DNA from: Thiotrichaceae bacterium
GTDB taxonomy: Bacteria > Pseudomonadota > Gammaproteobacteria > Beggiatoales > Beggiatoaceae
DNA length: 64,000 bases
NCBI GenBank assembly: GCA_011391085.1
Contig: JAABRD010000001.1
Location: 1-64,000, forward strand
Reading direction: 5' to 3'
The notes under the pieces are model-generated. The model was not told the origin of the DNA. It did not search any database and saw nothing but the letters and a program-made list of their open reading frames with translations. This document shows, piece by piece, positions 46,165 through 56,425 of the stretch (position 1 is the first letter of the stretch; each line of letters begins with the position of its first letter). A program made the position numbers and the translations under genes.

Positions 46165-47415
46165 ATGCGAACCTTAATAACTTTATTTTTACTTAACTTA
46201 TCATTCTCTAGTGTAGCCCAACCCGTCCAAATAATGGATTTACAATTTTTGAAAACATCCCAACAAAATCTGCGGCTGGTATTTGATTTAAGTGCGCCAG
46301 TTACGCATAATATCTTCACTCTCACGTCGCCTTATCGCTTGGTGATAGATTTTAAAAATGTGGCATTGGGCGAGAAAAAACTCGCTTTTGATAACCAAAC
46401 GCTAGTCACCGATATTCGCAGTGCGGCCCGTAATAAGGGGTTACGACTGGTGTTAGAACTGTCCGCCCCAGTCCATAGCAAAAGTTTTTTGCAAAAACCG
46501 ACTGGTAAATTTGGTCATCGTTTAATTATAGAGATAAATACGTTGACAGGCAATGATTCCACCAGCACGGATTCTCTAGTCACAAGTCTTCCCAATGCGA
46601 CCACTTCCTCATTTTCGCCTCCCCAGTTGGTGTCTTCGGCATTTCAGTCGTTGCTAAATCTATCTTCCACCACCACCTCTTCACCACCACCAGATTCTGC
46701 CAATGACATTGTGATCGCGATTGATGCCGGGCATGGGGGGATCGATTCTGGTACCGTGGGACAAGGAGGCACGTTGGAGAAAGAAGTGGATTTCGAAATT
46801 GCTAAAGAACTGGCAACCTTGATAACAGAGGATACCGGAATGCGTCCCGTATTAATTCGCGATGGCGACTACTTTTTAGAACTGCGCCGACGTGTGGAAC
46901 TGGCACGAGAAGCCCATGCTGACTTGTTTATCTCCCTCCACGCCGATGCCTATCCCAGTAGTAACCGCGTACATGGTTCAAGTGTTTATATGTTATCCAG
47001 TAGCGGTGCCAGCAGTGAAGCGGCGCAATGGTTGGCAGAACGCGAAAACTCCGCGGACCTAGCGGGTGGAATTAAGTTAAGTGACAAGGATGAACTGCTT
47101 GCTTCCGTACTGATTGACCTGTTGCAAACGGGTACTCTACAAGCCAGTGCCCAGGTGGGAAATAGTGTCTTGAAATCTTTAAAGAACGTTGGTAAGAATC
47201 ATTTTAATTATGTCCAACAAGCCAACTTCATGGTGTTACGGTCTCGCGAGATTCCTTCGATTCTGATAGAAACGGCCTTTCTGTCGAATCCAGAAGATGA
47301 AAAGAAACTCAATGATCCGGCCTATCGTCTTAGCATTGCCCAAGCCATTTTAGAGGGGGTGCAAGAATATTTTGCGGCCCATCCACCGTTGAATAAGACG
47401 TTGGCAAATCGGTGA
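46165..47415 (+). CDS. amiC: N-acetylmuramoyl-L-alanine amidase (AMIN + Amidase_3)
   Basis: 416 residues from the ATG at 46165. Signal peptide 'MRTLITLFLLNLSFSSVAQP', so periplasmic. AMIN domain (about 20-125: 'LRLVFDLSAPVTHNIFTLTS', 'RLVIDFKNV'), which targets the septum or outer structures. A Ser/Thr-rich linker follows, then Amidase_3 (about 185-405) with zinc ligands in 'IAIDAGHGGIDSGTVGQGGT' (His), 'LEKEVDFEIAKELA' (Glu), 'HADLFISLHADAYPS' (His) and the catalytic Glu in 'PSILIETAFLSNPEDEKKL'. It cleaves the amide between N-acetylmuramic acid and L-Ala during cell separation. Gene order here lacks mutL, its usual neighbour. amiB is an alternative name. Confidence 0.9.
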   Translation: MRTLITLFLLNLSFSSVAQPVQIMDLQFLKTSQQNLRLVFDLSAPVTHNIFTLTSPYRLVIDFKNVALGEKKLAFDNQTLVTDIRSAARNKGLRLVLELSAPVHSKSFLQKPTGKFGHRLIIEINTLTGNDSTSTDSLVTSLPNATTSSFSPPQLVSSAFQSLLNLSSTTTSSPPPDSANDIVIAIDAGHGGIDSGTVGQGGTLEKEVDFEIAKELATLITEDTGMRPVLIRDGDYFLELRRRVELAREAHADLFISLHADAYPSSNRVHGSSVYMLSSSGASSEAAQWLAERENSADLAGGIKLSDKDELLASVLIDLLQTGTLQASAQVGNSVLKSLKNVGKNHFNYVQQANFMVLRSREIPSILIETAFLSNPEDEKKLNDPAYRLSIAQAILEGVQEYFAAHPPLNKTLANR

Positions 47416-47430
47416 TGACAAGATACACCA

Positions 47431-47459
47431 GGAGTCCAAAGCTACGCTTTGGACTCCTG
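47431..47459. repeat. AGGAGTCCAAAGCTACGCTTTGGACTCCT palindrome
   Basis: Near-perfect 29-bp palindrome 16 nt after the amidase gene; a plausible terminator but without a T-run. Best-preserved member of its family in the window. Confidence 0.85.
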
Positions 47460-47466
47460 AGTTAAA

Positions 47467-47583
47467 TATAGTAATATTCCTCATCACTTGTACCCCCCCT
47501 GCCCCCCGCACGCGGGGGGAGTCACTCCCCCCCGTGTACGGGGGGGCAGGGGGGGGGTACAAATGAGAAGCAATATTACTATA
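47467..47583. mobile_element. 117-bp MITE-like element with 27-bp imperfect ends
   Basis: Ends TATAGTAATATTCCTCATCA... and ...AATATTACTATA are inverted and mostly alike; the interior is a long C/G-tract hairpin (CCCCCCCTGCCCCCCGCACG ... CGTGTACGGGGGGGCAGGGG). No coding capacity. A solo arm of the same end is at 17904-17930. Confidence 0.65.
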
Positions 47584-47606
47584 CTAAATGTTTAAGAGGC
47601 ATACAA

Positions 47607-48362
47607 ATGAAATTTGATGATTTTGATAAAAAAATGCGCGTGTTTGAAACCGCGTCAGACTATTGTGTGTTACCAGGTTTATACATGGTAGCAAGATTAG
47701 ATGGACATGGTTTCACACGCTTGACCAAACAAGTGTATCAGTTTGAAGCACCTTATGATATACGATTTCGTGACTACATGATAGAGGTGGTCAAACATCT
47801 GATGGATTGCGGTTTTAGAGTGATTTATGGATATACTCAAAGCGATGAAATTTCTTTATGGTTTCATCCACAAGAGGAGGCTTTTCAAAGAAAATTGAGG
47901 AAATATCATTCGATTTTGGCGGGCGAGGCCAGTGCCAAATTTTCTTTATTATTGGGACAACCTGGCATCTTTGATGGTCGTCTATCACAATTGCCTTCGC
48001 TAGAATGGGTGAGTGACTATTTCTTGTGGCGTCAAGAAGATGCGCATCGAAATGCCCTCAACTCGCATTGCTATTGGTTATTGCGAAAACAGGGGAAATC
48101 TGTGCGAGAGGCGACGGACGCCTTGTTGGGATTATCGGTATCTGCCAAAAATGAGTTATTATTTAGTCATGGCATTAACTTCAATGAGTTACCCACTTGG
48201 CAAAAGCGTGGCGTCGGTTTATACTGGGAAGAGTATGATAAACAGGGATACAATCCCGTGACCGGCGAATCTGTGTTGACCAAAAGGAGACGTATCCAAT
48301 GTGACCTAAACTTGCCGATGAAGGAAAATTATCGGGAGTTTTTGTTGAACCTTGGTTTTTAG
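47607..48362 (+). CDS. Thg1-like protein (3'-5' nucleotidyltransferase)
   Basis: 251 residues. 'YMVARLDGHGFTRLTKQVYQ' is the R-x-D-G-x-x-F metal-binding motif, and 'VIYGYTQSDEISLWF' holds the second acidic motif (S-D-E); 'HSILAGEASAKFSLL' follows as in Thg1. Thg1 adds a guanine 5' to tRNA-His; bacterial Thg1-like proteins instead repair 5'-truncated tRNAs by templated 3'-5' addition. Length and motifs indicate an active enzyme. 'KRRRIQCDLNLPMKENYREF' at the end is typical of the bacterial group. AAGAGG sits 8 nt before the ATG. No tRNA-His is in the window. Which activity applies cannot be decided from sequence alone. Confidence 0.9.
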   Translation: MKFDDFDKKMRVFETASDYCVLPGLYMVARLDGHGFTRLTKQVYQFEAPYDIRFRDYMIEVVKHLMDCGFRVIYGYTQSDEISLWFHPQEEAFQRKLRKYHSILAGEASAKFSLLLGQPGIFDGRLSQLPSLEWVSDYFLWRQEDAHRNALNSHCYWLLRKQGKSVREATDALLGLSVSAKNELLFSHGINFNELPTWQKRGVGLYWEEYDKQGYNPVTGESVLTKRRRIQCDLNLPMKENYREFLLNLGF

Positions 48363-48393
48363 CGGATAGCCAGATAGTGATTTACTCACCGTA

Positions 48394-48451
48394 CCGGAGT
48401 AGAGGCTTTAGCCGGTGACGTACCGCGAGTTCCGGCTGAAGCCTCTACTCC
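48394..48451. repeat. Inverted pair of GGAGTAGAGGC repeat
   Basis: ACCGGAGTAGAGGCTTTAGC and TCCGGCTGAAGCCTCTACTCC arms around a 16-nt loop, followed at 48469-48487 by TATTCATTATTCATTATAA heptamers before the ATG of the next gene. Confidence 0.8.
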
Positions 48452-48493
48452 TACGTTAACAATTATCATCTATTCATTATTCATTATAACATT

Positions 48494-49579
48494 ATGAACG
48501 ACACCACAGAGTTAATTAACACCGTTGCCTCTGAACCTCCAAAACCCAAACGTAGAAACAAATTCTGGTGGTTGATCCTACCAGGAATAGCGGGCATCGT
48601 AGCTGTCATAAGCTACCTGGGATGGCAACAATTCACTCAGTCGCAACAAGATTTGCAACGACAAGTCAAGGAGTTGCAAAATCAAGTGACTACGTTGGAG
48701 GGAAAATTTCAGGCATTGTTATCGACAGAGGAGAAACGCACGCCTTCTGAACAGATAGAAGCGCAACTGCTGTCGTTTTCGAAACAACTGCAACAGTTGG
48801 GCAACCAACAAAATACGTTGGCAAACCAAGTTCGTCAACCGCATCCGCGGGACGAGGATTGGATTTTCGCAGAAACGATGTATTTGCTGACTCTGGCACA
48901 GTATCATTTGCAGTTTACGCAAGCAGTTGACAATGCCTTGCCGATATTAAAGGAGGCAGAAACCAATCTGGAGAGTTTGAATCAACCTGCGGTGCTAGAC
49001 ATCAGAACCAAATTGGTTGCCAAAATCCGGGAATTAAGTCAGGCGAAAATGCCTCCAATTGACCAATTGGCCACACGTTTAACTGAATTTGCCACCCTGG
49101 CACAAACTTTACCCTTGATACAAGGTTCTCGTCATCTGGTAAAGTCCTCTGCCACCACGTCTAACCAGGCATCGCCGGTGGCAGACACCTGGCAAGACTG
49201 GGTTGGTGTGGTGTGGAATCAAATCAAACAATTGGTAGTCATCCGTTACAACACTGAAGCAGATAGAGGCTTGTTATCCGTGGAACAACGTGAATTTGTG
49301 ATGCACAATTTACGTTTGAATTTGGACCTAGCGCGGGTTTCACTATGGCGTCGTGACACGCACAACTTTACTGCCTCCCTACAAACGGCGCGGGACTGGT
49401 TAACGCGCTATTATGACCCAAATGACAGCGATGTGAAAAAGGTGCAAGAGGACCTGGCCCAGATGCAAACCGAAGTGTTAACACCCAAGTTACCAGATGT
49501 TACCGAAATACTGCAACAGTTACAACAAATGGTGTCTAATTCTACTTCCCAATCTGAATCCACGGAGACTACCCCATGA
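48494..49579 (+). CDS. hemX: HemX family protein
   Basis: 361 residues. One N-terminal membrane anchor ('FWWLILPGIAGIVAVISYLG') preceded by a short basic tail, then a periplasmic coiled coil ('QQDLQRQVKELQNQVTTLEG') and a helical domain with 'DWIFAETMYLLTLAQYHLQF' and 'LLSVEQREFVMHNLRLNLDL', as in HemX, sometimes mislabelled uroporphyrinogen-III methyltransferase. No methyltransferase motif is present. The protein is thought to work with HemY in heme synthesis or trafficking. The end overlaps hemY by 4 bp (ATGA). hemC and hemD, which usually precede it, are not here; the Thg1-like gene takes that position. Confidence 0.88.
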   Translation: MNDTTELINTVASEPPKPKRRNKFWWLILPGIAGIVAVISYLGWQQFTQSQQDLQRQVKELQNQVTTLEGKFQALLSTEEKRTPSEQIEAQLLSFSKQLQQLGNQQNTLANQVRQPHPRDEDWIFAETMYLLTLAQYHLQFTQAVDNALPILKEAETNLESLNQPAVLDIRTKLVAKIRELSQAKMPPIDQLATRLTEFATLAQTLPLIQGSRHLVKSSATTSNQASPVADTWQDWVGVVWNQIKQLVVIRYNTEADRGLLSVEQREFVMHNLRLNLDLARVSLWRRDTHNFTASLQTARDWLTRYYDPNDSDVKKVQEDLAQMQTEVLTPKLPDVTEILQQLQQMVSNSTSQSESTETTP

Positions 49580-50763
49580 AATGGCTTATCACGTTATTGC
49601 TAATCTTGATTGTGGCTGTGATATTTACATTATCGGCCCTGATTGACCCTGGTTTCGTCATTATCGGCCGCGGCGGGTGGACGTTGGAAACAACGTTGTC
49701 GATGTTTCTAATTGGACTGGTAGTGAGTTGGTTCCTACTACATCATCTGCTACGCCTGTTAAAGTTCCTCTGGCAATTACCTTCTCGGTTTGGGAAACGC
49801 AGTAGCTGGCAGTTGCAACAACAGGCCCAGACTTCGTTATTACGCGGTGTATTGGCACTGCTAGAACGAGATTGGCAAACCGCAGAACAATCTTTTTTAA
49901 AGGCCGTGTCACCTAACGAATTGTCGATGTTACACTACTTGGGGGCTTCTTATGCAGCTTCTCAAGTGCGAGACCATTCGCGAATGATAAACTATCTGAA
50001 TGAAATAGCGGTCAAGGAGGCACCAGAACAATTGGCGGTGACGTTGTTCACTGCACAGTTACACTGGCAACAACGAAATTTGCCAGCGGCATTGCAAGTC
50101 ACGTTGCGGGCCCATTCTCTGTCGCCTAAAAACGAGAATCTGATCATGTTGTTATCCTTGTATTTACAATTGGCAGATTGGCCGGCATTATTGGAACTGT
50201 TGCCAGAAGTGCGCAAACGTAAGACGTTGCCTGTTGAACAAATTCAACGTTTAGAAAATCGGGCCAGTGTCGCGTTGATTCAATATACGTTGCGAACCAA
50301 TCCTAAGCAAGCGGCCAACTGGTGGTCGCAAATCCCCAAAGCCATTCGGTTGCGTCCTGTGGTATTGAAGGTCTATATTCAACATTTGATTGGTGTAAAG
50401 GAGATGACTGCTGCTGAATCATTGTTAAAGGAGGCTTTGAAATATCATTGGGATGCCGATTTAATTCGGTTATATGGAGACGTGGAAACGCCTCATATTG
50501 TTCAACAAATCAGTTATGCAGAGGGGCTGTTAAAAAGTCACGAGAAGGACCCGGACTTGTTATTGATGTTAGGGCGTCTCTGTATGCGCAATCGGTTATG
50601 GGGTAAGGCACAACAGTATTTGGAAGCCAGTTCTCATCTAGCCCCAAGTCCGGTGACTTATAAGGTGTTGGGGGAGTTATATACACAATTGGAAGAACAG
50701 GGGAAGGCGGGGGAATATTATCGGCGGGGGTTGTTGTTGGCGTTGGAAACTAGCGGTGTCTGA
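49576..50763 (+). CDS. hemY: HemY family protein with TPR domain
   Basis: 395 residues. Two membrane segments at the N-terminus ('WLITLLLILIVAVIFTLSAL' and 'LSMFLIGLVVSWFLLHHLLR'), with 'LIDPGFVIIGRGGWTLETTL' between them, as in HemY. Then a TPR-rich cytoplasmic or periplasmic part ('AHSLSPKNENLIMLLSLYLQ', 'HEKDPDLLLMLGRLCMRNRL', 'VTYKVLGELYTQLEEQGKAG'). Full length. HemY of this type has no enzymatic motif; it is linked to porphyrin metabolism through its operon. It is translationally coupled to hemX and is unrelated to the protoporphyrinogen oxidase also called HemY. Confidence 0.9.
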   Translation: MKWLITLLLILIVAVIFTLSALIDPGFVIIGRGGWTLETTLSMFLIGLVVSWFLLHHLLRLLKFLWQLPSRFGKRSSWQLQQQAQTSLLRGVLALLERDWQTAEQSFLKAVSPNELSMLHYLGASYAASQVRDHSRMINYLNEIAVKEAPEQLAVTLFTAQLHWQQRNLPAALQVTLRAHSLSPKNENLIMLLSLYLQLADWPALLELLPEVRKRKTLPVEQIQRLENRASVALIQYTLRTNPKQAANWWSQIPKAIRLRPVVLKVYIQHLIGVKEMTAAESLLKEALKYHWDADLIRLYGDVETPHIVQQISYAEGLLKSHEKDPDLLLMLGRLCMRNRLWGKAQQYLEASSHLAPSPVTYKVLGELYTQLEEQGKAGEYYRRGLLLALETSGV

Positions 50764-50779
50764 ATTGTGACTTGCTTGT

Positions 50780-50817
50780 GTAGGTTGGACAAAGTGAAAG
50801 CGAAGTTCAACCTACCC
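50780..50817. repeat. GTAGGTTGGA...TTCAACCTACC inverted repeat
   Basis: TGTAGGTTGGAC and GTTCAACCTACC arms with a 14-nt A/G-rich loop, between hemY and the Septu-like operon; a plausible bidirectional terminator. Confidence 0.55.
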
Positions 50818-50829
50818 TCTACTTTGTGT

Positions 50830-51492
50830 TCAAGTATTTTCTGGCAAGAGTTGTTGTTTCATCATCTCAAACGCGGTGAAATATTGAAAAACCGGTTCGA
50901 TGTCTTGTCCCTTTTCTAGTCGTTTGAGTTTGGGTTCCAGATAAGAACGTCGTGAATCCTTCACAGTTCCCAGATTCAATCCCAAGGCGATAATCATGTC
51001 CTCAATGTTCGTAACCAACTGTTCGTCTTTAATCTTAGGATGAGCGTAAAAAACGCCTTCTTTACGGTCATAAGCTAACAGTTTATAAGGGTCATAATCG
51101 GGCGAATCAGGTTTTAGAATCTCATCTACGGGGGCATCTAATTTTGAAGTATTGACTTTATCCAACACGGCAAAGAAATTCTCCCAACTCCAACCTTTAG
51201 TTGTTTTCAAACTATGGTCAAAATGGTCTAGCTGTGCAGAAAAACTGTGTTCTTTTTTGGATTTGGAATCAGCAATGACATATCTTCCGTTTGTGAAATT
51301 ATGAGGTCCATATCTTTCTTCACTCGCAATGAAAGTTTCTGTATAAGCACATAACCCTTTTTGACAATAGAGCAAACTGACCAATACATCTGTGTAGTAT
51401 TTATGGTTAGAACTGTTATACTTAGGATGGTCTTTGATTATTCTTGTCAAAATTGGCCACCCACTGGGCATATTTAGTGGCAAGAATTTCAC
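50830..51492 (-). CDS. ptuB: HNH nuclease-like protein, PtuB-type
   Basis: 220 residues from a GTG that starts 2 nt after the ATPase stop. Homing-type HNH features: 'VSLLYCQKGLCAYTETFIAS' (Cys pair), 'SFSAQLDHFDHSLKTT' (central Asp-His), then 'GWSWENFFAVLDKVNTSK' (the W-x-N...N-x-x-K half). In Septu/retron defences PtuB carries such an HNH and is directed by the ATPase PtuA. The second Cys pair of the zinc knuckle is incomplete ('CQKGLC' then 'KVN' instead of CxxC), so the zinc site may be atypical. Function is inferred from operon context: last gene of a three-gene unit with PtuA. Confidence 0.75.
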   Translation of the reverse strand: MKFLPLNMPSGWPILTRIIKDHPKYNSSNHKYYTDVLVSLLYCQKGLCAYTETFIASEERYGPHNFTNGRYVIADSKSKKEHSFSAQLDHFDHSLKTTKGWSWENFFAVLDKVNTSKLDAPVDEILKPDSPDYDPYKLLAYDRKEGVFYAHPKIKDEQLVTNIEDMIIALGLNLGTVKDSRRSYLEPKLKRLEKGQDIEPVFQYFTAFEMMKQQLLPENT

Positions 51493-51494
51493 TT

Positions 51495-52874
51495 TTATCG
51501 ATCTTTCTCATGGAGTCTCCAAGCCAGTTTTTGTGCCCATTTCTCAAATTCGATTAGCAACCTTTTTCCCTCCTCAGTATCCAACTGATTCTCCTGTTTT
51601 AGCTTGTCAAGTTGAGCTTGTAGCCGAGAAGTCCTCATCAAAGCCTTGTTTCGGTACTGTTCATTACCTTCCACGGCTAAATCAAAAATGCGCAGCAAAA
51701 TGGTATCCCATCGTAAATAGCGAGGGTCAAGAAAATAATTGTCTATATGCCGTTCGCCCGTGTAATAAAGTTCTTGATAAACAGCACCTTGGTCATCAAA
51801 TTTCAGTTCCACTATTTCCCACGGTTCAAACGCCGAGGCTAAAATAGGTGAGTGAGTAGCAAACCAGAACTGCGCTTTGGGCGCGAGTTCGGTACAGTAA
51901 TTAATAATTTCAGTTTGAACATCAGGATATAAGGACCTCTCTGGTTCGTCTATCAAAATGATAGCATGGTCAGTGTTGAGTTGAAACAGTGGAGTTAACA
52001 TCAAAATCACTTGTTTCGTGCCCGTACTCCAGCTACCATAAGGAATTTCACTACCCTTCAAGGATTCAATCTGAATAAATTTCAAATCCTCGATAGATTC
52101 AAATTCAACCGTTGTTTTGACGTTCAGACCAAACTTGTGCAACAGTGGATTTAACTGTTGCGCTAATTTTTCCAGAGGATTAGGATTTTCCAGTTTCCAA
52201 GCTTTATCCGATTCAATAATTTTCTTAATCTCTGGTTTTTCCAGGCCGGTGGCAATAGCGACGGTAAGTTCTTGTCTAAATTTTAGGCTATATTGTACTT
52301 CCTTGACCTTGTAAGCATAGATATTTTTTAAAACATCATCCCAGACTTCTAATATATTGTCTTGTTCAAAATCAAAATAGCGACGCATTTCCGTCTTGAC
52401 CGGCGTCGTATTATTTACAGTTGATTCCACTTTTAAAGCGTCAAGAGGATTAATACGTTTAGAAGATTCCTGAGGAGGCAACAACTTGGTCATTTCCGCT
52501 GGAAAATATATGAACCAGGTGTAACGTTGACGATGTTCACGATAAAGTGTCTTGATTTCCTCTTCAGATTTCCCAGAGGTAGAATCTTTTGCCGACAGCG
52601 ATAGTTTGCCATCTCTGATTTTTAGAGTGAGTTCCACCCCTGGCTCTAACTCCATTGTAGCCATAATTTGTTTCATCTTTGGGTCGAGATAGTTCTTCTC
52701 CAATAGGGATAAACACACCTTCAACAAAGTGGTCTTGCCGGTCCCACTTTGACCAATTAAACAAACTTTATCCAACGCCTGCCCTGCTTTTTCATGTCCT
52801 TTGGGATAAGTCAAGTCTAAGGTCAAATGGTCAAATTGATGGTAATTTGTTATTTCTAGTCGACTAATTTTCAT
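51495..52874 (-). CDS. ptuA: ABC/SMC-type ATPase, PtuA-like
   Basis: 459 residues. 'KISRLEITNYHQFDHLTLDL' start, Walker A 'VCLIGQSGTGKTTLLKVCLS', a family insert with coiled coil, ABC signature-like 'SYGSWSTGTKQVILMLTPLF', Walker B 'HAIILIDEPERSLYPDVQTE' and H-loop 'APKAQFWFATHSPILASAFE'. This is the ATPase of Septu-type (PtuAB) systems and relatives (OLD-like without TOPRIM). With the HNH gene it should recognise phage interference and cut nucleic acid. Its ATG overlaps the stop of a small upstream gene (ATGA). No reverse transcriptase is nearby, so it is not a retron. Confidence 0.82.
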   Translation of the reverse strand: MKISRLEITNYHQFDHLTLDLTYPKGHEKAGQALDKVCLIGQSGTGKTTLLKVCLSLLEKNYLDPKMKQIMATMELEPGVELTLKIRDGKLSLSAKDSTSGKSEEEIKTLYREHRQRYTWFIYFPAEMTKLLPPQESSKRINPLDALKVESTVNNTTPVKTEMRRYFDFEQDNILEVWDDVLKNIYAYKVKEVQYSLKFRQELTVAIATGLEKPEIKKIIESDKAWKLENPNPLEKLAQQLNPLLHKFGLNVKTTVEFESIEDLKFIQIESLKGSEIPYGSWSTGTKQVILMLTPLFQLNTDHAIILIDEPERSLYPDVQTEIINYCTELAPKAQFWFATHSPILASAFEPWEIVELKFDDQGAVYQELYYTGERHIDNYFLDPRYLRWDTILLRIFDLAVEGNEQYRNKALMRTSRLQAQLDKLKQENQLDTEEGKRLLIEFEKWAQKLAWRLHEKDR

Positions 52875-53071
52875 GGTTTTATGTGCTTCAATCCATCCAA
52901 CTCTGCTACAGAAAACTCTTCTGCAATAGCCCTTAAATCTTTCTGAACTTGAGGATCATCAGTCATCAACCGAATTTGAACCGCAAAATATTTGTCTTTG
53001 TTGAATGTGAGTCGCATTATGGTTTTCTGAGGATCGAAATTTCCTCTTGGTTTGAGATTGTGTGCATACAT
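52871..53071 (-). CDS. Small unknown first gene of the Septu-like operon
   Basis: 66 residues from the ATG at 53071 (GGTGAG about 10 nt upstream); a longer in-frame start at 53155 lies in sequence with no ribosome binding site. Sequence 'MYAHNLKPRGNFDPQKTIMR' then 'LTFNKDKYFAVQIRLMTDDP' and 'LRAIAEEFSVAELDGLKHIK'. It looks like a small alpha-beta fold with an acidic C-terminal helix; I do not recognise it. Its stop overlaps the ATPase start by 4 bp, so it is co-translated with PtuA. It could be a regulator or an added sensor component. Confidence 0.6.
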   Translation of the reverse strand: MYAHNLKPRGNFDPQKTIMRLTFNKDKYFAVQIRLMTDDPQVQKDLRAIAEEFSVAELDGLKHIKP

Positions 53072-53238
53072 GACGCTTATCTCACCACTTGATTTTATAA
53101 GGCGGCCAAACGAGGTACTGGAATAGAAAATTAAGACATGGGGAAACGACGACACAAAAGATAACAGTTCTTACACTGTTAATCATTGAGATACCCGAAC
53201 AGGGGCTATAAAGATGGGGGATTACTGCGAGAAAAAAT

Positions 53239-53315
<77 letters not shown>

Positions 53316-53329
53316 TTCACTTGTCATCA

Positions 53330-53358
53330 TATATAAGGTCTAATCAGAAACTTTACAA
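53330..53358 (-). promoter_or_regulatory. Promoter of the initiator tRNA gene
   Basis: On the minus strand, TTGTAA (53353-53358) and TATATA (53330-53335) are separated by exactly 17 nt. They lie 15 nt before the tRNA 5' end, as for a sigma-70 promoter with a short leader. Confidence 0.65.
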
Positions 53359-53362
53359 GACA

Positions 53363-53395
53363 CTTTTTGAAAATTTTTTCAAATTTTTCAAAAAG
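53363..53395. terminator. AT-rich hairpin after the membrane protein gene
   Basis: CTTTTTGAAAA and its inverted partner around TTTTTTCAAATT form an A/T-rich stem on the minus strand downstream of the gene ending at 53474. A terminator is possible; stability is low. Confidence 0.35.
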
Positions 53396-53473
53396 CCTTG
53401 TCTTCTGCGCCTGACAGGATATGTCTTAAAATTGCATGGAAAATTCTAAAACCATTTTTATATAGATTATCAT

Positions 53474-54136
53474 CTATTTTCCATGCAAATAATGTTTATC
53501 ACTAAAGCTACTCACCCATTGCGGGTAATAAACGACCAGGACAGTGACCAAGAGTCCATTGGTAAAGGCTTCAGGAAATAGCATGACAATCATAAATATG
53601 GGTTCGTCACCTAAATTTATCAAGGTGTAGGCCCCACTACTTAGTAAAATTCCCAATCCCACTAGGCGACTGGCTAACATGGCTAACGCACTTCCTGCAA
53701 AAGCCACCACATAAATATAAATAAACAGGTGTTTAGGTAGCCATCTGTAGGCTAACCAGTACATTCCATAGCTGATCCAAACGGGGATGATACCATTGCA
53801 CAAGGTATTGAGGGAATAACTGGCCCATTCTGATTTGCCTTCTAAGGTCAATCCCAATTGGGCAAGGCTAGTGGCCAAAATCGCAAATGGCCAGCCAAAC
53901 ATCAGGGTAAGAGTGGTGACTAACAATAAATGAAATTCCATCCCTGCCGTGAGACCTGCGCTTTGATGCCAAATTAGCCATAAAATCACACAACTCGCTA
54001 ATAAGACATGGGTATCTTCAGAATTTTTGAAATGATACCAGGGCGCCTCTCGGACCGCCCAGAGAAGTATGATAAGGTATAAAATATGACTTGTCCATAG
54101 CCAAGCAGTTGGTAACAGGGAAGCGGGAAAGTTCAT
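53474..54136 (-). CDS. Polytopic membrane protein, COG3235 / CbiM-like
   Basis: 220 residues with about six membrane segments ('WTSHILYLIILLWAVREAPW', 'LLASCVILWLIWHQSA', 'LLLVTTLTLMFGWPFAILAT', 'IPVWISYGMYWLAYRWL', 'LFIYIYVVAFAGSALAMLAS', 'FPEAFTNGLLVTVLVVYYP'). 'SAGLTAGMEFHLLLVTTLTL' and 'DEPIFMIVMLFPEAFTNGLL' fit the uncharacterised group related to the CbiM-type energy-coupling membrane proteins (cobalt/nickel uptake). No ATPase or T-component gene is nearby, so transport of metal is only inferred. Encoded alone, between two hairpins. Confidence 0.7.
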   Translation of the reverse strand: MNFPASLLPTAWLWTSHILYLIILLWAVREAPWYHFKNSEDTHVLLASCVILWLIWHQSAGLTAGMEFHLLLVTTLTLMFGWPFAILATSLAQLGLTLEGKSEWASYSLNTLCNGIIPVWISYGMYWLAYRWLPKHLFIYIYVVAFAGSALAMLASRLVGLGILLSSGAYTLINLGDEPIFMIVMLFPEAFTNGLLVTVLVVYYPQWVSSFSDKHYLHGK

Positions 54137-54180
54137 GTGCTACTATCTATAAATATCAGAAATTACGCAACCATGTCAAA

Positions 54181-54211
54181 GAAACTAAATTTCTTTAAGA
54201 AACTTAGTTTC
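54181..54211. repeat. GAAACTAAATTTCTTTAAGAAACTTAGTTTC inverted repeat
   Basis: Member of the AAGAAACTTAGTTTCTT family, between two minus-strand genes; its position allows a terminator role for the upstream LprI-domain gene, 39 nt after its stop. Confidence 0.7.
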
Positions 54212-54249
54212 TCATCGCCAATCAGGTAACTTACGTTGATCTGGTTTTG

Positions 54250-55653
54250 TTATTCCTGAATCGCATTCAGAATCACTTCTAACTCCGCCACTCTCTCGCG
54301 AGTCATTTTTTCCAAACAACTCCATAAGTCACTTGGAATATTCTTACCCTTCAAAGTCGTTTGCCAGGCACAATTTTTATCGCGAAATTCAAGCCAGGCT
54401 TTTTGGGCCCCCACGAAACTGGTTAAGTTAACAGGTCCTTCTACCTCACTTTCACCTTCTATTTTTAAAGCTTCTTTTAGGCGTTTATATACCTCATTCA
54501 ATTGCTTATCTTGAATTTTATAAGCGACCTGGGACTCCGATTCAACTTTCGGTGGCACCACTGGTGGTGGAGAAGTGACCACTTGGGCTGGCAATGGAGT
54601 TGTGATAATTGGAATAGCAGGTATCCCGATTTGATCTAAATTGATGATTTCTTTCATCAAATTTGGGTTCGCCTCCCACAGAAAACCTACCAATTTGGCC
54701 CGATTCAATGCCTCAATTGGTGATAGATTGCCTCCTCCATTGGCTGGTTTAGGTTCAAAGAGGTACTTCACACTCTCCATATTTTTGAAATGGCAAAGCG
54801 TTTGCCCACTGTATTCCTGAATACCCGCTTCACAATCGACCTGTTCATCTTTAAACAAATCTTTATAGAGGATACCCACTTTAGCACCGCCAGGGGCCCT
54901 GGCTTGTTCATCAAAGATTTCAAGCCGGGCAATTTTCCGCGTGGTTGGGTCTGGAAATATTCTCAATTGCAACTGATTTTGACGATAAAACATCAACACG
55001 TCTATGACCTCTTGCTTATCCTCATTCAGATGCGTCGCCTTTTGGACCGTATAGCCAGACAAGGCCTCTGTTAAAGTAGCCTCGTTAAAATCACTCTCAG
55101 GCGTCAAGGTCCCAACGCTTTGCGGGGTCACAAACAAAATTTTAGATTCCCCTTGAGAAGCCAATAGAGTAAAGCTATCTGCCTGTTTGGTAAAGAAGAA
55201 AAAAACTCCCTCCCAATTACTCAGTATCAGATCATCAGAAATTCTGACAAATTCCCGACTTTTACCCAACCAACTTTCCTCTTTACAACGGATTGTCACC
55301 ACTTCCACTTCAGTTTGGGTGATTCCCAGCCGAGTGGGTTTGACCTTGTAACCCACCAAAAAATATCCTTCCGCATTTTGCATGGATACGTCATAAGAAA
55401 ATTCTGGACATGTCTGCAACTGCGTCATCCCTTCTCGCAACGTAGCCTTTTTCCGCGAACTAAATTCCACCAGCTTGCCTATCCAGTTTTTCGCCTGGGC
55501 TTCATTCATAGCGGGATAACCGATGATTTGGTAACTGATGACTTTCCATACCCCGACCATGGGAAAATCTTTGGTAGGCGAAGTGGCATACACTTCGTGA
55601 GAGAGAAGGATACTTAACCAAGAAATTAACACCATGTTGAAAGATTTTTTCAT
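54250..55653 (-). CDS. Exported protein with C-terminal LprI (DUF1311) domain
   Basis: 467 residues from the ATG at 55653. Signal peptide 'MKKSFNMVLISWLSILLSHE' (cleavage near 'VYA'), so periplasmic. The central ~330 residues are not recognised; they contain 'FPMVGVWKVISYQIIGYPAM' at the start and scattered Cys ('DCEAGIQEYSGQTLCHF'). The C-terminal ~85 residues match the lysozyme-inhibitor LprI/DUF1311 layout: 'LNEVYKRLKEALKIEGESEV', 'VGAQKAWLEFRDKNCAW', 'CLEKMTRERVAELEVIL'. A Pro/Val-rich linker ('PPPVVPPKVESES') separates the parts. Function probably concerns the envelope. Encoded alone. Confidence 0.7.
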   Translation of the reverse strand: MKKSFNMVLISWLSILLSHEVYATSPTKDFPMVGVWKVISYQIIGYPAMNEAQAKNWIGKLVEFSSRKKATLREGMTQLQTCPEFSYDVSMQNAEGYFLVGYKVKPTRLGITQTEVEVVTIRCKEESWLGKSREFVRISDDLILSNWEGVFFFFTKQADSFTLLASQGESKILFVTPQSVGTLTPESDFNEATLTEALSGYTVQKATHLNEDKQEVIDVLMFYRQNQLQLRIFPDPTTRKIARLEIFDEQARAPGGAKVGILYKDLFKDEQVDCEAGIQEYSGQTLCHFKNMESVKYLFEPKPANGGGNLSPIEALNRAKLVGFLWEANPNLMKEIINLDQIGIPAIPIITTPLPAQVVTSPPPVVPPKVESESQVAYKIQDKQLNEVYKRLKEALKIEGESEVEGPVNLTSFVGAQKAWLEFRDKNCAWQTTLKGKNIPSDLWSCLEKMTRERVAELEVILNAIQE

Positions 55654-55777
55654 AAATATAATGACCTTTGATTGATAGATAAGTATGATATTAAAGACAA
55701 CGTTGGGTAGAGTCAAGACTTGAAGGCGGTCAAATTTTTTTACGTTATATCTGTTTCAAAAAGAGGATAATTCATCT

Positions 55778-56425
55778 ATGAAACCCTTTTCTAAATGGAC
55801 CATTGAAGCTGTTGAAGAACAATTTAACCTGACTTGTTCACAAGAACATCCACGTATGACCGAGTGGCTAACTCTTCATGCAGTGCCAGAGGAAGATAAG
55901 CAGAGATTGCCATTGCAAGCGTTGCAACAAAAATTGCTTAATCACGTCTATGATTGGAATGAACAAGAACTCATTGTCTATTTTATAGCCCCCCTGTTAC
56001 ATCTGGTCGACTTTGAACAAGAACATTACCATCCCTTTTTTCAAAGAGAAATCTCCGTCAAATACCATAATGAAATATTGTCAGGCGTGGTTGACTGTGT
56101 CATCGCCCAAGGCAAACGTTCCCCCAAACGCCCGTTCTTCTTTCTCCAAGAATATAAAAAAGAACATGATTCCTCCAATGATCCGTTGGGACAACTGATG
56201 ATTGCTATGGTGGCGGCCCAACAGTTGAATCAACACCAACATCCCGTATATGGTGCTTATGTGATAGGACGCTACTGGCATTTTGTCCTCCTCGATGGCT
56301 TAGAATACGCGGTACACACGGGTTTCAACGCCTCCAAAGAGGAGATTCAAGCCATCTTTGGAGTATTGAAAAATACCAAAGCGATTATTGATAAGATACT
56401 TCAGGAGTCCAAAGCTACGCTTTGA
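55778..56425 (+). CDS. PD-(D/E)XK nuclease-like hypothetical protein
   Basis: 215 residues. Starts 'MKPFSKWTIEAVEEQFNLTC', and the core is 'LSGVVDCVIAQGKRSPKRPF' followed by 'FFLQEYKKEH' — Asp, then Glu-x-Lys: the PD-(D/E)XK arrangement of a nuclease or nuclease-derived protein. Then 'DPLGQLMIAMVAAQQLNQHQ' and 'GAYVIGRYWHFVLLDGLEYA' (strand-rich). The family is common in Bacteroidetes and cyanobacteria and mostly unassigned. The last residues ('LQESKATL') come from a GGAGTCCAAAGC repeat (56403-56432), which supplies the stop. AAAGAGG lies 14 nt before the ATG. Role unknown. Confidence 0.68.
   Translation: MKPFSKWTIEAVEEQFNLTCSQEHPRMTEWLTLHAVPEEDKQRLPLQALQQKLLNHVYDWNEQELIVYFIAPLLHLVDFEQEHYHPFFQREISVKYHNEILSGVVDCVIAQGKRSPKRPFFFLQEYKKEHDSSNDPLGQLMIAMVAAQQLNQHQHPVYGAYVIGRYWHFVLLDGLEYAVHTGFNASKEEIQAIFGVLKNTKAIIDKILQESKATL

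What the first reader, a model, noticed from the sequence alone, without database searches (positions are those of the whole stretch)
50830..53071. Septu-like operon with an extra small first gene, next to an initiator tRNA
A PtuA-type ATPase and PtuB-type HNH gene sit in a compact operon with a 66-residue unknown gene overlapping the ATPase start (ATGA). Standard Septu has two genes. The HNH appears to lack a full zinc knuckle. The operon lies directly downstream of the initiator tRNA gene, a typical integration site, though no integrase or repeat of the tRNA end is visible.
Basis: partly seen in the sequence, partly recalled or inferred. Interest (0 to 1): 0.65.

Follow-up and report, generated by a model that had tools for sequence, protein, structure and literature searches.

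The report
Broken Septu pair plus orphan antitoxin
An ordinary two-gene bacterial anti-phage system (Septu), apparently with its nuclease gene knocked out of frame, sits behind a small gene that does not look like part of Septu but resembles the tail of antitoxins that normally pair with the MazF toxin.

Summary
The three frames exist as described, beside an initiator-type tRNA, but the reading changes. (1) ptuA is a full-length Septu ATPase (PADLOC PDLC00274, E 1.7e-73); 62 relatives were fetched and 56 carry the same ptuB next door. (2) The missing zinc knuckle is no oddity: none of the 56 has a CxxC, all keep the HNH His and Asn; the solved E. coli Septu PtuB shows C..S there too. The AlphaFold model of a relative matches solved PtuB chains (Z up to 16.5). 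(3) ptuB in the window is frame-broken: the relatives' first residues (MRKIDK...) lie in another frame than the HNH core, so GTG 51492 is not the ancestral start. Recent mutation or assembly error; undecided. (4) The 66-residue protein is not a conserved Septu component: 0 of 62 relatives have it. Its last ~40 residues match the tail of antitoxins sitting in front of MazF/PemK genes (7 of 11 tail loci); it scores 45.5 bits against 9.8 for the best of 20,000 shuffles. It lacks the longer N-terminal part of those antitoxins and has no MazF beside it. No tRNA-end repeat was found. Verdict: new member of a known kind; the antitoxin-tail/ptuA adjacency is the unusual point and was seen once.

The parts
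52871..53071 (-). 66-aa small gene; residues ~23-63 are a MazF-antitoxin-type tail; orphan (no mazF beside it)
   Evidence: tail profile hit G000:C53:52880-53002
51495..52874 (-). ptuA, Septu ATPase, 459 aa, full length; P-loop (res. 41-49), D309/E310 and T340-H341-S342-P343 among the invariant columns of 52 aligned sequences
51434..51511 (-). 5' part of ptuB (relatives' residues 1-26, MRKIDK...) in a frame other than the HNH core; overlaps the end of ptuA by 17 nt (14 nt in L014-L018)
50830..51435 (-). HNH core of ptuB, lacking the zinc-knuckle cysteines; the annotated 220-aa ORF (51492-50830, GTG) begins with out-of-frame residues
53239..53315 (-). tRNA-Met(CAT), initiator-type by its GGG/CCC anticodon stem (criterion recalled)

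Best explanation
A two-gene Septu locus (ptuA-ptuB, PtuA1/PtuB1 type with a knuckle-less HNH) lies behind an orphan antitoxin-like gene. In working relatives the PtuA ATPase would hold the PtuB nuclease in check and release it on infection, cutting DNA or tRNA (inferred from published Septu and retron-Eco7 work). Here ptuB is split between two frames, so as assembled the system is probably off (mutation, or assembly error). The small protein carries the conserved tail of antitoxins that sit in front of MazF; most likely it is a leftover or orphan antitoxin able to bind a MazF, not a Septu subunit. Shown: homologies, frame break in this sequence, absence of the small gene at relatives. Inferred: MazF binding, loss of defence.
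For: PtuA: PDLC00274 in 52 of 52 aligned sequences, the window's among them. ptuB found beside ptuA in 56 of 62 loci; 52 of 53 members of A5 match PADLOC HNH_I-A and 50 of 53 PDLC00351; model of L017 pLDDT 96, the 11 best PDB matches are chains of Septu/retron PtuAB entries, Z 12.3-16.5 against 5.5 for the best Cas9. Frame break: two tblastn pieces in two frames with 7 of 7 relatives used as queries; in 55 of 56 relatives the MRKIDK-type start is in frame with the core, in none in another frame only, and L063 shows no such start. Small protein: a tail profile made without it scores it 45.5 bits, best of 20,000 shuffles 9.8; 7 of 11 tail loci outside the window have PemK/MazF downstream, six of them overlapping by 1-8 nt; the tail profile finds nothing better than E 4.2 in 62 ptuA loci.
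Against: The small gene overlaps ptuA by ATGA much as tail antitoxins overlap mazF, so the two may be co-translated. Its codon use and SD-like site suggest a live gene, not debris. Of 12 columns invariant among the relatives the window keeps 11, and the one it differs at, like both others it misses of 33 columns conserved at 90%, is in the out-of-frame start; that fits a sequencing error or very recent break as well as decay. MazF binding by the tail is inferred from gene neighbourhood only.
Confidence: 0.75

Rival explanations
1. A real three-gene variant: the antitoxin-tail protein has been recruited as an antitoxin or regulator of PtuAB, taking the place that RT and msDNA have in retron-Eco7.
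For: ATGA overlap with ptuA, antitoxin-type tail, coding-like codons. Partner swapping between antitoxins and toxins, in a network that includes a PtuAB-like pair, is published (PMC10440598, passages read); a three-gene operon with a PtuA-like ATPase, ptuXYZ, exists (PMC11980606, passages). Other toxin-antitoxin genes stand before ptuA in L019 and L022.
Against: Seen in one genome; 0 of 62 relatives; ptuB is broken here.
Confidence: 0.08
2. The small gene is an orphan MazF antitoxin kept to neutralise MazF toxins arriving on mobile elements, and is only by chance next to ptuA.
For: The genome's only PF02452 match, at C48:21254, has a different-looking small gene before it; tail genes with no MazF seen nearby occur elsewhere (L077, L080, L119).
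Against: No selection test was possible; the longer N-terminal part of the other antitoxins is absent.
Confidence: 0.3
3. The frame change in ptuB is a programmed frameshift, not a break.
For: The core keeps its conserved residues.
Against: In 55 of 56 relatives the start is in frame with the core; no classic slippery site was seen by eye.
Confidence: 0.05

Closest known systems
Septu PtuAB of E. coli (8ee7/8eea)
   Same: PtuA and PtuB; PtuB fold (8eea_G Z 15.3); its first Cys pair also lacks the second Cys (LCCYSE)
   Different: 17% identity between 8eea_G and the L017 model; ptuB frame-broken in the window; antitoxin-like gene in front
Retron Ec78/Eco7 and Ec83 effectors (type I-A)
   Same: PtuB fold (9u9y_H Z 16.5)
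   Different: no reverse transcriptase among the main frames between hemY and the CbiM-like gene and only the tRNA at Rfam gathering scores; the three retron-type PtuBs whose first pair is shown have CAYC
Antitoxins in front of PemK/MazF (PF02452)
   Same: C-terminal tail and, in six of seven, overlap with the next gene
   Different: only about 25 residues before the tail; the next gene is ptuA, not mazF
ptuXYZ (PMC11980606)
   Same: PtuA-like ATPase in a three-gene operon with a toxin-antitoxin-type gene
   Different: its nuclease does not resemble PtuB and its third protein is a PIN'-YoeB toxin (passages)

Membership tests
Septu type I | PtuA-family ATPase | tested here: met
   PDLC00274 E 1.7e-73; motifs invariant in A4
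Septu type I | PtuB-type HNH directly downstream | tested here: met
   PDLC00347 E 1.1e-12; 56 of 62 relatives; fold of relative L017
Septu type I | intact ptuB reading frame in this genome | tested here: not met
   two frames; assembly error not excluded
Septu type I | catalytic His and Asn of HNH (H75/N91 in Septu EcB88, PMC13096335, passages) | tested here: met
   H90 and N105 in the window and in 56 of 56 relatives; equivalence to H75/N91 inferred from motif and spacing
Septu type I | phage protection | not testable with these tools
   -
Retron type I-A | reverse transcriptase and msr-msd RNA | tested here: not met
   main frames 48494-56422 scanned with Pfam, none an RT; Rfam gathering: only the tRNA in 50600-53700
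MazF-type antitoxin | MazF-associated C-terminal tail | tested here: met
   45.5 bits against 9.8 for the best of 20,000 shuffles
MazF-type antitoxin | N-terminal DNA-binding/dimer domain | tested here: not met
   about 25 residues only; no Pfam match over cut-off, no NCBIfam, PADLOC or PHROGs match
MazF-type antitoxin | adjacent mazF | tested here: not met
   next gene is ptuA; the genome's only PF02452 match (E <= 0.01) is on contig C48
tRNA-inserted island | integrase and repeat of the tRNA 3' end | tested here: inconclusive
   no tRNA-end repeat of 18 nt or more in 47000-56000; no integrase noticed in 48000-56000; shorter repeats and empty sites in kin not tested

The most novel reading that the evidence does not exclude
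A MazF-antitoxin tail has been recruited in front of Septu as a third, protein brake on PtuAB: an antitoxin-controlled Septu, of which searches found no report.
Probability: 0.07. Interest if true: 0.6.

Novelty: new member of a known kind. Interest (0 to 1): 0.27.

Why it matters
It shows that the apparent third gene of a defence operon can be a neighbour of other origin, and that a PtuB without CxxC is a stable subfamily spread over several phyla. If the antitoxin tail did control PtuAB it would tie toxin-antitoxin partner swapping directly to Septu.

Tried and rejected
Small gene as a conserved Septu subunit: rejected, 0 of 62. tRNA-borne island: no repeat; a hemY search in 42 genomes of the order gave 18 with a match, but the 21 loci scanned held no tRNA; this test is weak, since the loci end 1.5 kb from hemY, short even of the window's own tRNA, so no empty site was identified. 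Promoters and terminators: no more than in shuffles. Viral contigs: PtuB gave one locus, judged by eye a chance match (L011); PtuA, the small protein and the tail none. Plasmids: PtuB, PtuA, the small protein and the L083 antitoxin none; phages: PtuA none, the others not tried. PtuB in 369 class genomes: own genome only. PDLC00274 at E 1e-30 in 369 class and 398 phylum genomes: own genome only, with two places, but only the four best candidates a genome were scored, so absence is weakly shown. The scan took 80 pattern matches, possibly its limit, so 62 may be a lower bound. Tail profile: two weak hits inside long frames in the order, one weak partial hit in 369 class genomes, none counted; against PDB only short matches, mostly designed coiled-coil peptides. 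Six ptuA loci without a ptuB match (L019, L020, L026, L030, L031, L037) were not resolved; of the 56 ptuB copies, L025 and L035 look cut at a contig end and L056 and L066 look stopped early. Of the upstream genes of 61 relatives only 10 proteins were scanned with Pfam; two are TA toxins (YafQ in L019, HepT-like in L022), none an antitoxin tail. Paper search for Septu with Beggiatoa: 26 papers, the five listed off the subject; the NSMB 2024 PtuAB paper is not held, and that E. coli Septu works is recalled and from citations in the passages. Searches for a PtuA operon with an antitoxin gene: one known paper each.

Full report
Observation. The genome (5.77 Mb, 140 contigs) lies in the same family as genomes G770 and G772, whose hit coordinates equal those in the Candidatus Parabeggiatoa genomes behind L015 and L031.

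ptuA. The 459-aa protein matches PADLOC PtuA PDLC00274 (E 1.7e-73). One scan of genome contigs gave 62 relatives from Beggiatoa-like bacteria, Desulfobacterales, Bacteroidota, Aminicenantes and others, 33-67% identical in the best segment. All 52 sequences of alignment A4, the window's included, match PDLC00274. The window protein aligns from residue 1 to 454 or 456 with L014 and L017 and has the P-loop, D309/E310 and THSP columns that are invariant in A4.

ptuB. A match to the window PtuB lies right after ptuA in 56 of 62 relatives. In the 56, the position of the second Cys of CxxC is T (50), S (5) or K (1); none has a CxxC anywhere; C48, H90, N105 and N114 are in all 56. The genome's other PtuAB pair (C48, L076 2933-5022) has CIYC and matches PADLOC PtuA and PtuB models. 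Among solved PtuBs, the retron types shown have CAYC and E. coli Septu has LCCYSE, so loss of that Cys is not new; the second Cys pair of the solved chains was not compared. The AlphaFold model of relative L017 (pLDDT 96) finds Septu and retron PtuB chains first.

Frame break. In the nearest relatives, L014-L018, ptuB overlaps the end of ptuA by 14 nt and begins MRKIDK or MKKIDK. In the window that stretch is in one frame (51511 to 51434 at most) and the rest in another (from about 51435 to 50848), with 7 of 7 relatives used as queries. In 55 of 56 relatives such a start is in frame with the core; L063 shows none. The GTG start at 51492 only opens the second frame. Intact copies exist in the relatives. 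Of 33 columns conserved at 90% among the relatives the window differs at three, all in the out-of-frame start, so the break is recent or an assembly error; this could not be decided here. Damaged copies seem to occur elsewhere too (L056 and L066 stop early).

The small gene. Single-sequence searches in 42 genomes of the order and in the genomes of 29 of the 62 relatives hit only the C-terminal part, in three genomes of the same family and one of the Aminicenantes. A tail profile found 7 of 327 genomes around the latter, itself and six more. Counting each locus once there are 11 tail loci outside the window: L077-L080, L083, L116-L121. Seven have a PF02452 (PemK/MazF) gene next downstream (L078, L079, L083, L117, L118, L120, L121), six of them overlapping by 1-8 nt and L079 after a gap; L116 has what looks by eye like a MazF remnant without a Pfam match; L077, L080 and L119 show none. 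The N-terminal parts differ in kind by eye while the tail stays, so the tail is the likely toxin-binding element (inference). The window's protein scores 45.5 bits with a profile made without it; the best of 20,000 shuffles scores 9.8. In six-frame translations of the 62 relative loci no tail is found (best E 4.2); L072 holds no upstream sequence.

Setting. Genes before ptuA in 61 relatives mostly differ from locus to locus by eye. Of 10 upstream proteins scanned, L019 has a YafQ toxin 183 nt before ptuA and L022 a HepT-like RNase 7 nt before it, so toxin-antitoxin neighbours recur, but not the same one. tRNA genes: in 4 of 60 loci scanned, 2 of them (both Chitinophaga) within 250 nt before ptuA.

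Mechanism. From the abstract and passages read, Septu EcB88 and retron-Eco7 PtuAB act on tRNA-Tyr, and PtuAB of another E. [quoted passage not shown]). The target of this subfamily is unknown; I take nuclease release by PtuA as most likely. As assembled the window's copy probably does not work. The small protein, if made, most likely binds a MazF.

Noticed in passing
L076 2933-5022 (own genome, contig C48): A second, apparently intact PtuAB pair with a CIYC zinc-type HNH and a 4-nt overlap of the two genes.
   Followed up: partly
L022 630-977 and L019 3548-3814: HepT-like RNase 7 nt and YafQ toxin 183 nt in front of ptuA relatives: toxin-antitoxin genes recur beside this Septu subfamily.
   Followed up: partly
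L083, L116-L121, L077-L080: A MazF-antitoxin tail family carried by several kinds of N-terminal part; no convincing Pfam match in the seven members scanned nor NCBIfam match in the five of A1.
   Followed up: partly
window 47607-48362: Thg1-type tRNA-His guanylyltransferase gene (PF04446, E 2.3e-30) in a bacterial genome.
   Followed up: no
window 55778-56425: Protein matching the PADLOC PD_DExK model (E 2.5e-15).
   Followed up: no
window 48396-48451: 20-nt inverted repeat, 95% complementary, 16-nt loop, between genes.
   Followed up: no
L019 from 5449: ptuA relative followed by a second ATPase-like frame (by eye) instead of a recognisable ptuB.
   Followed up: no
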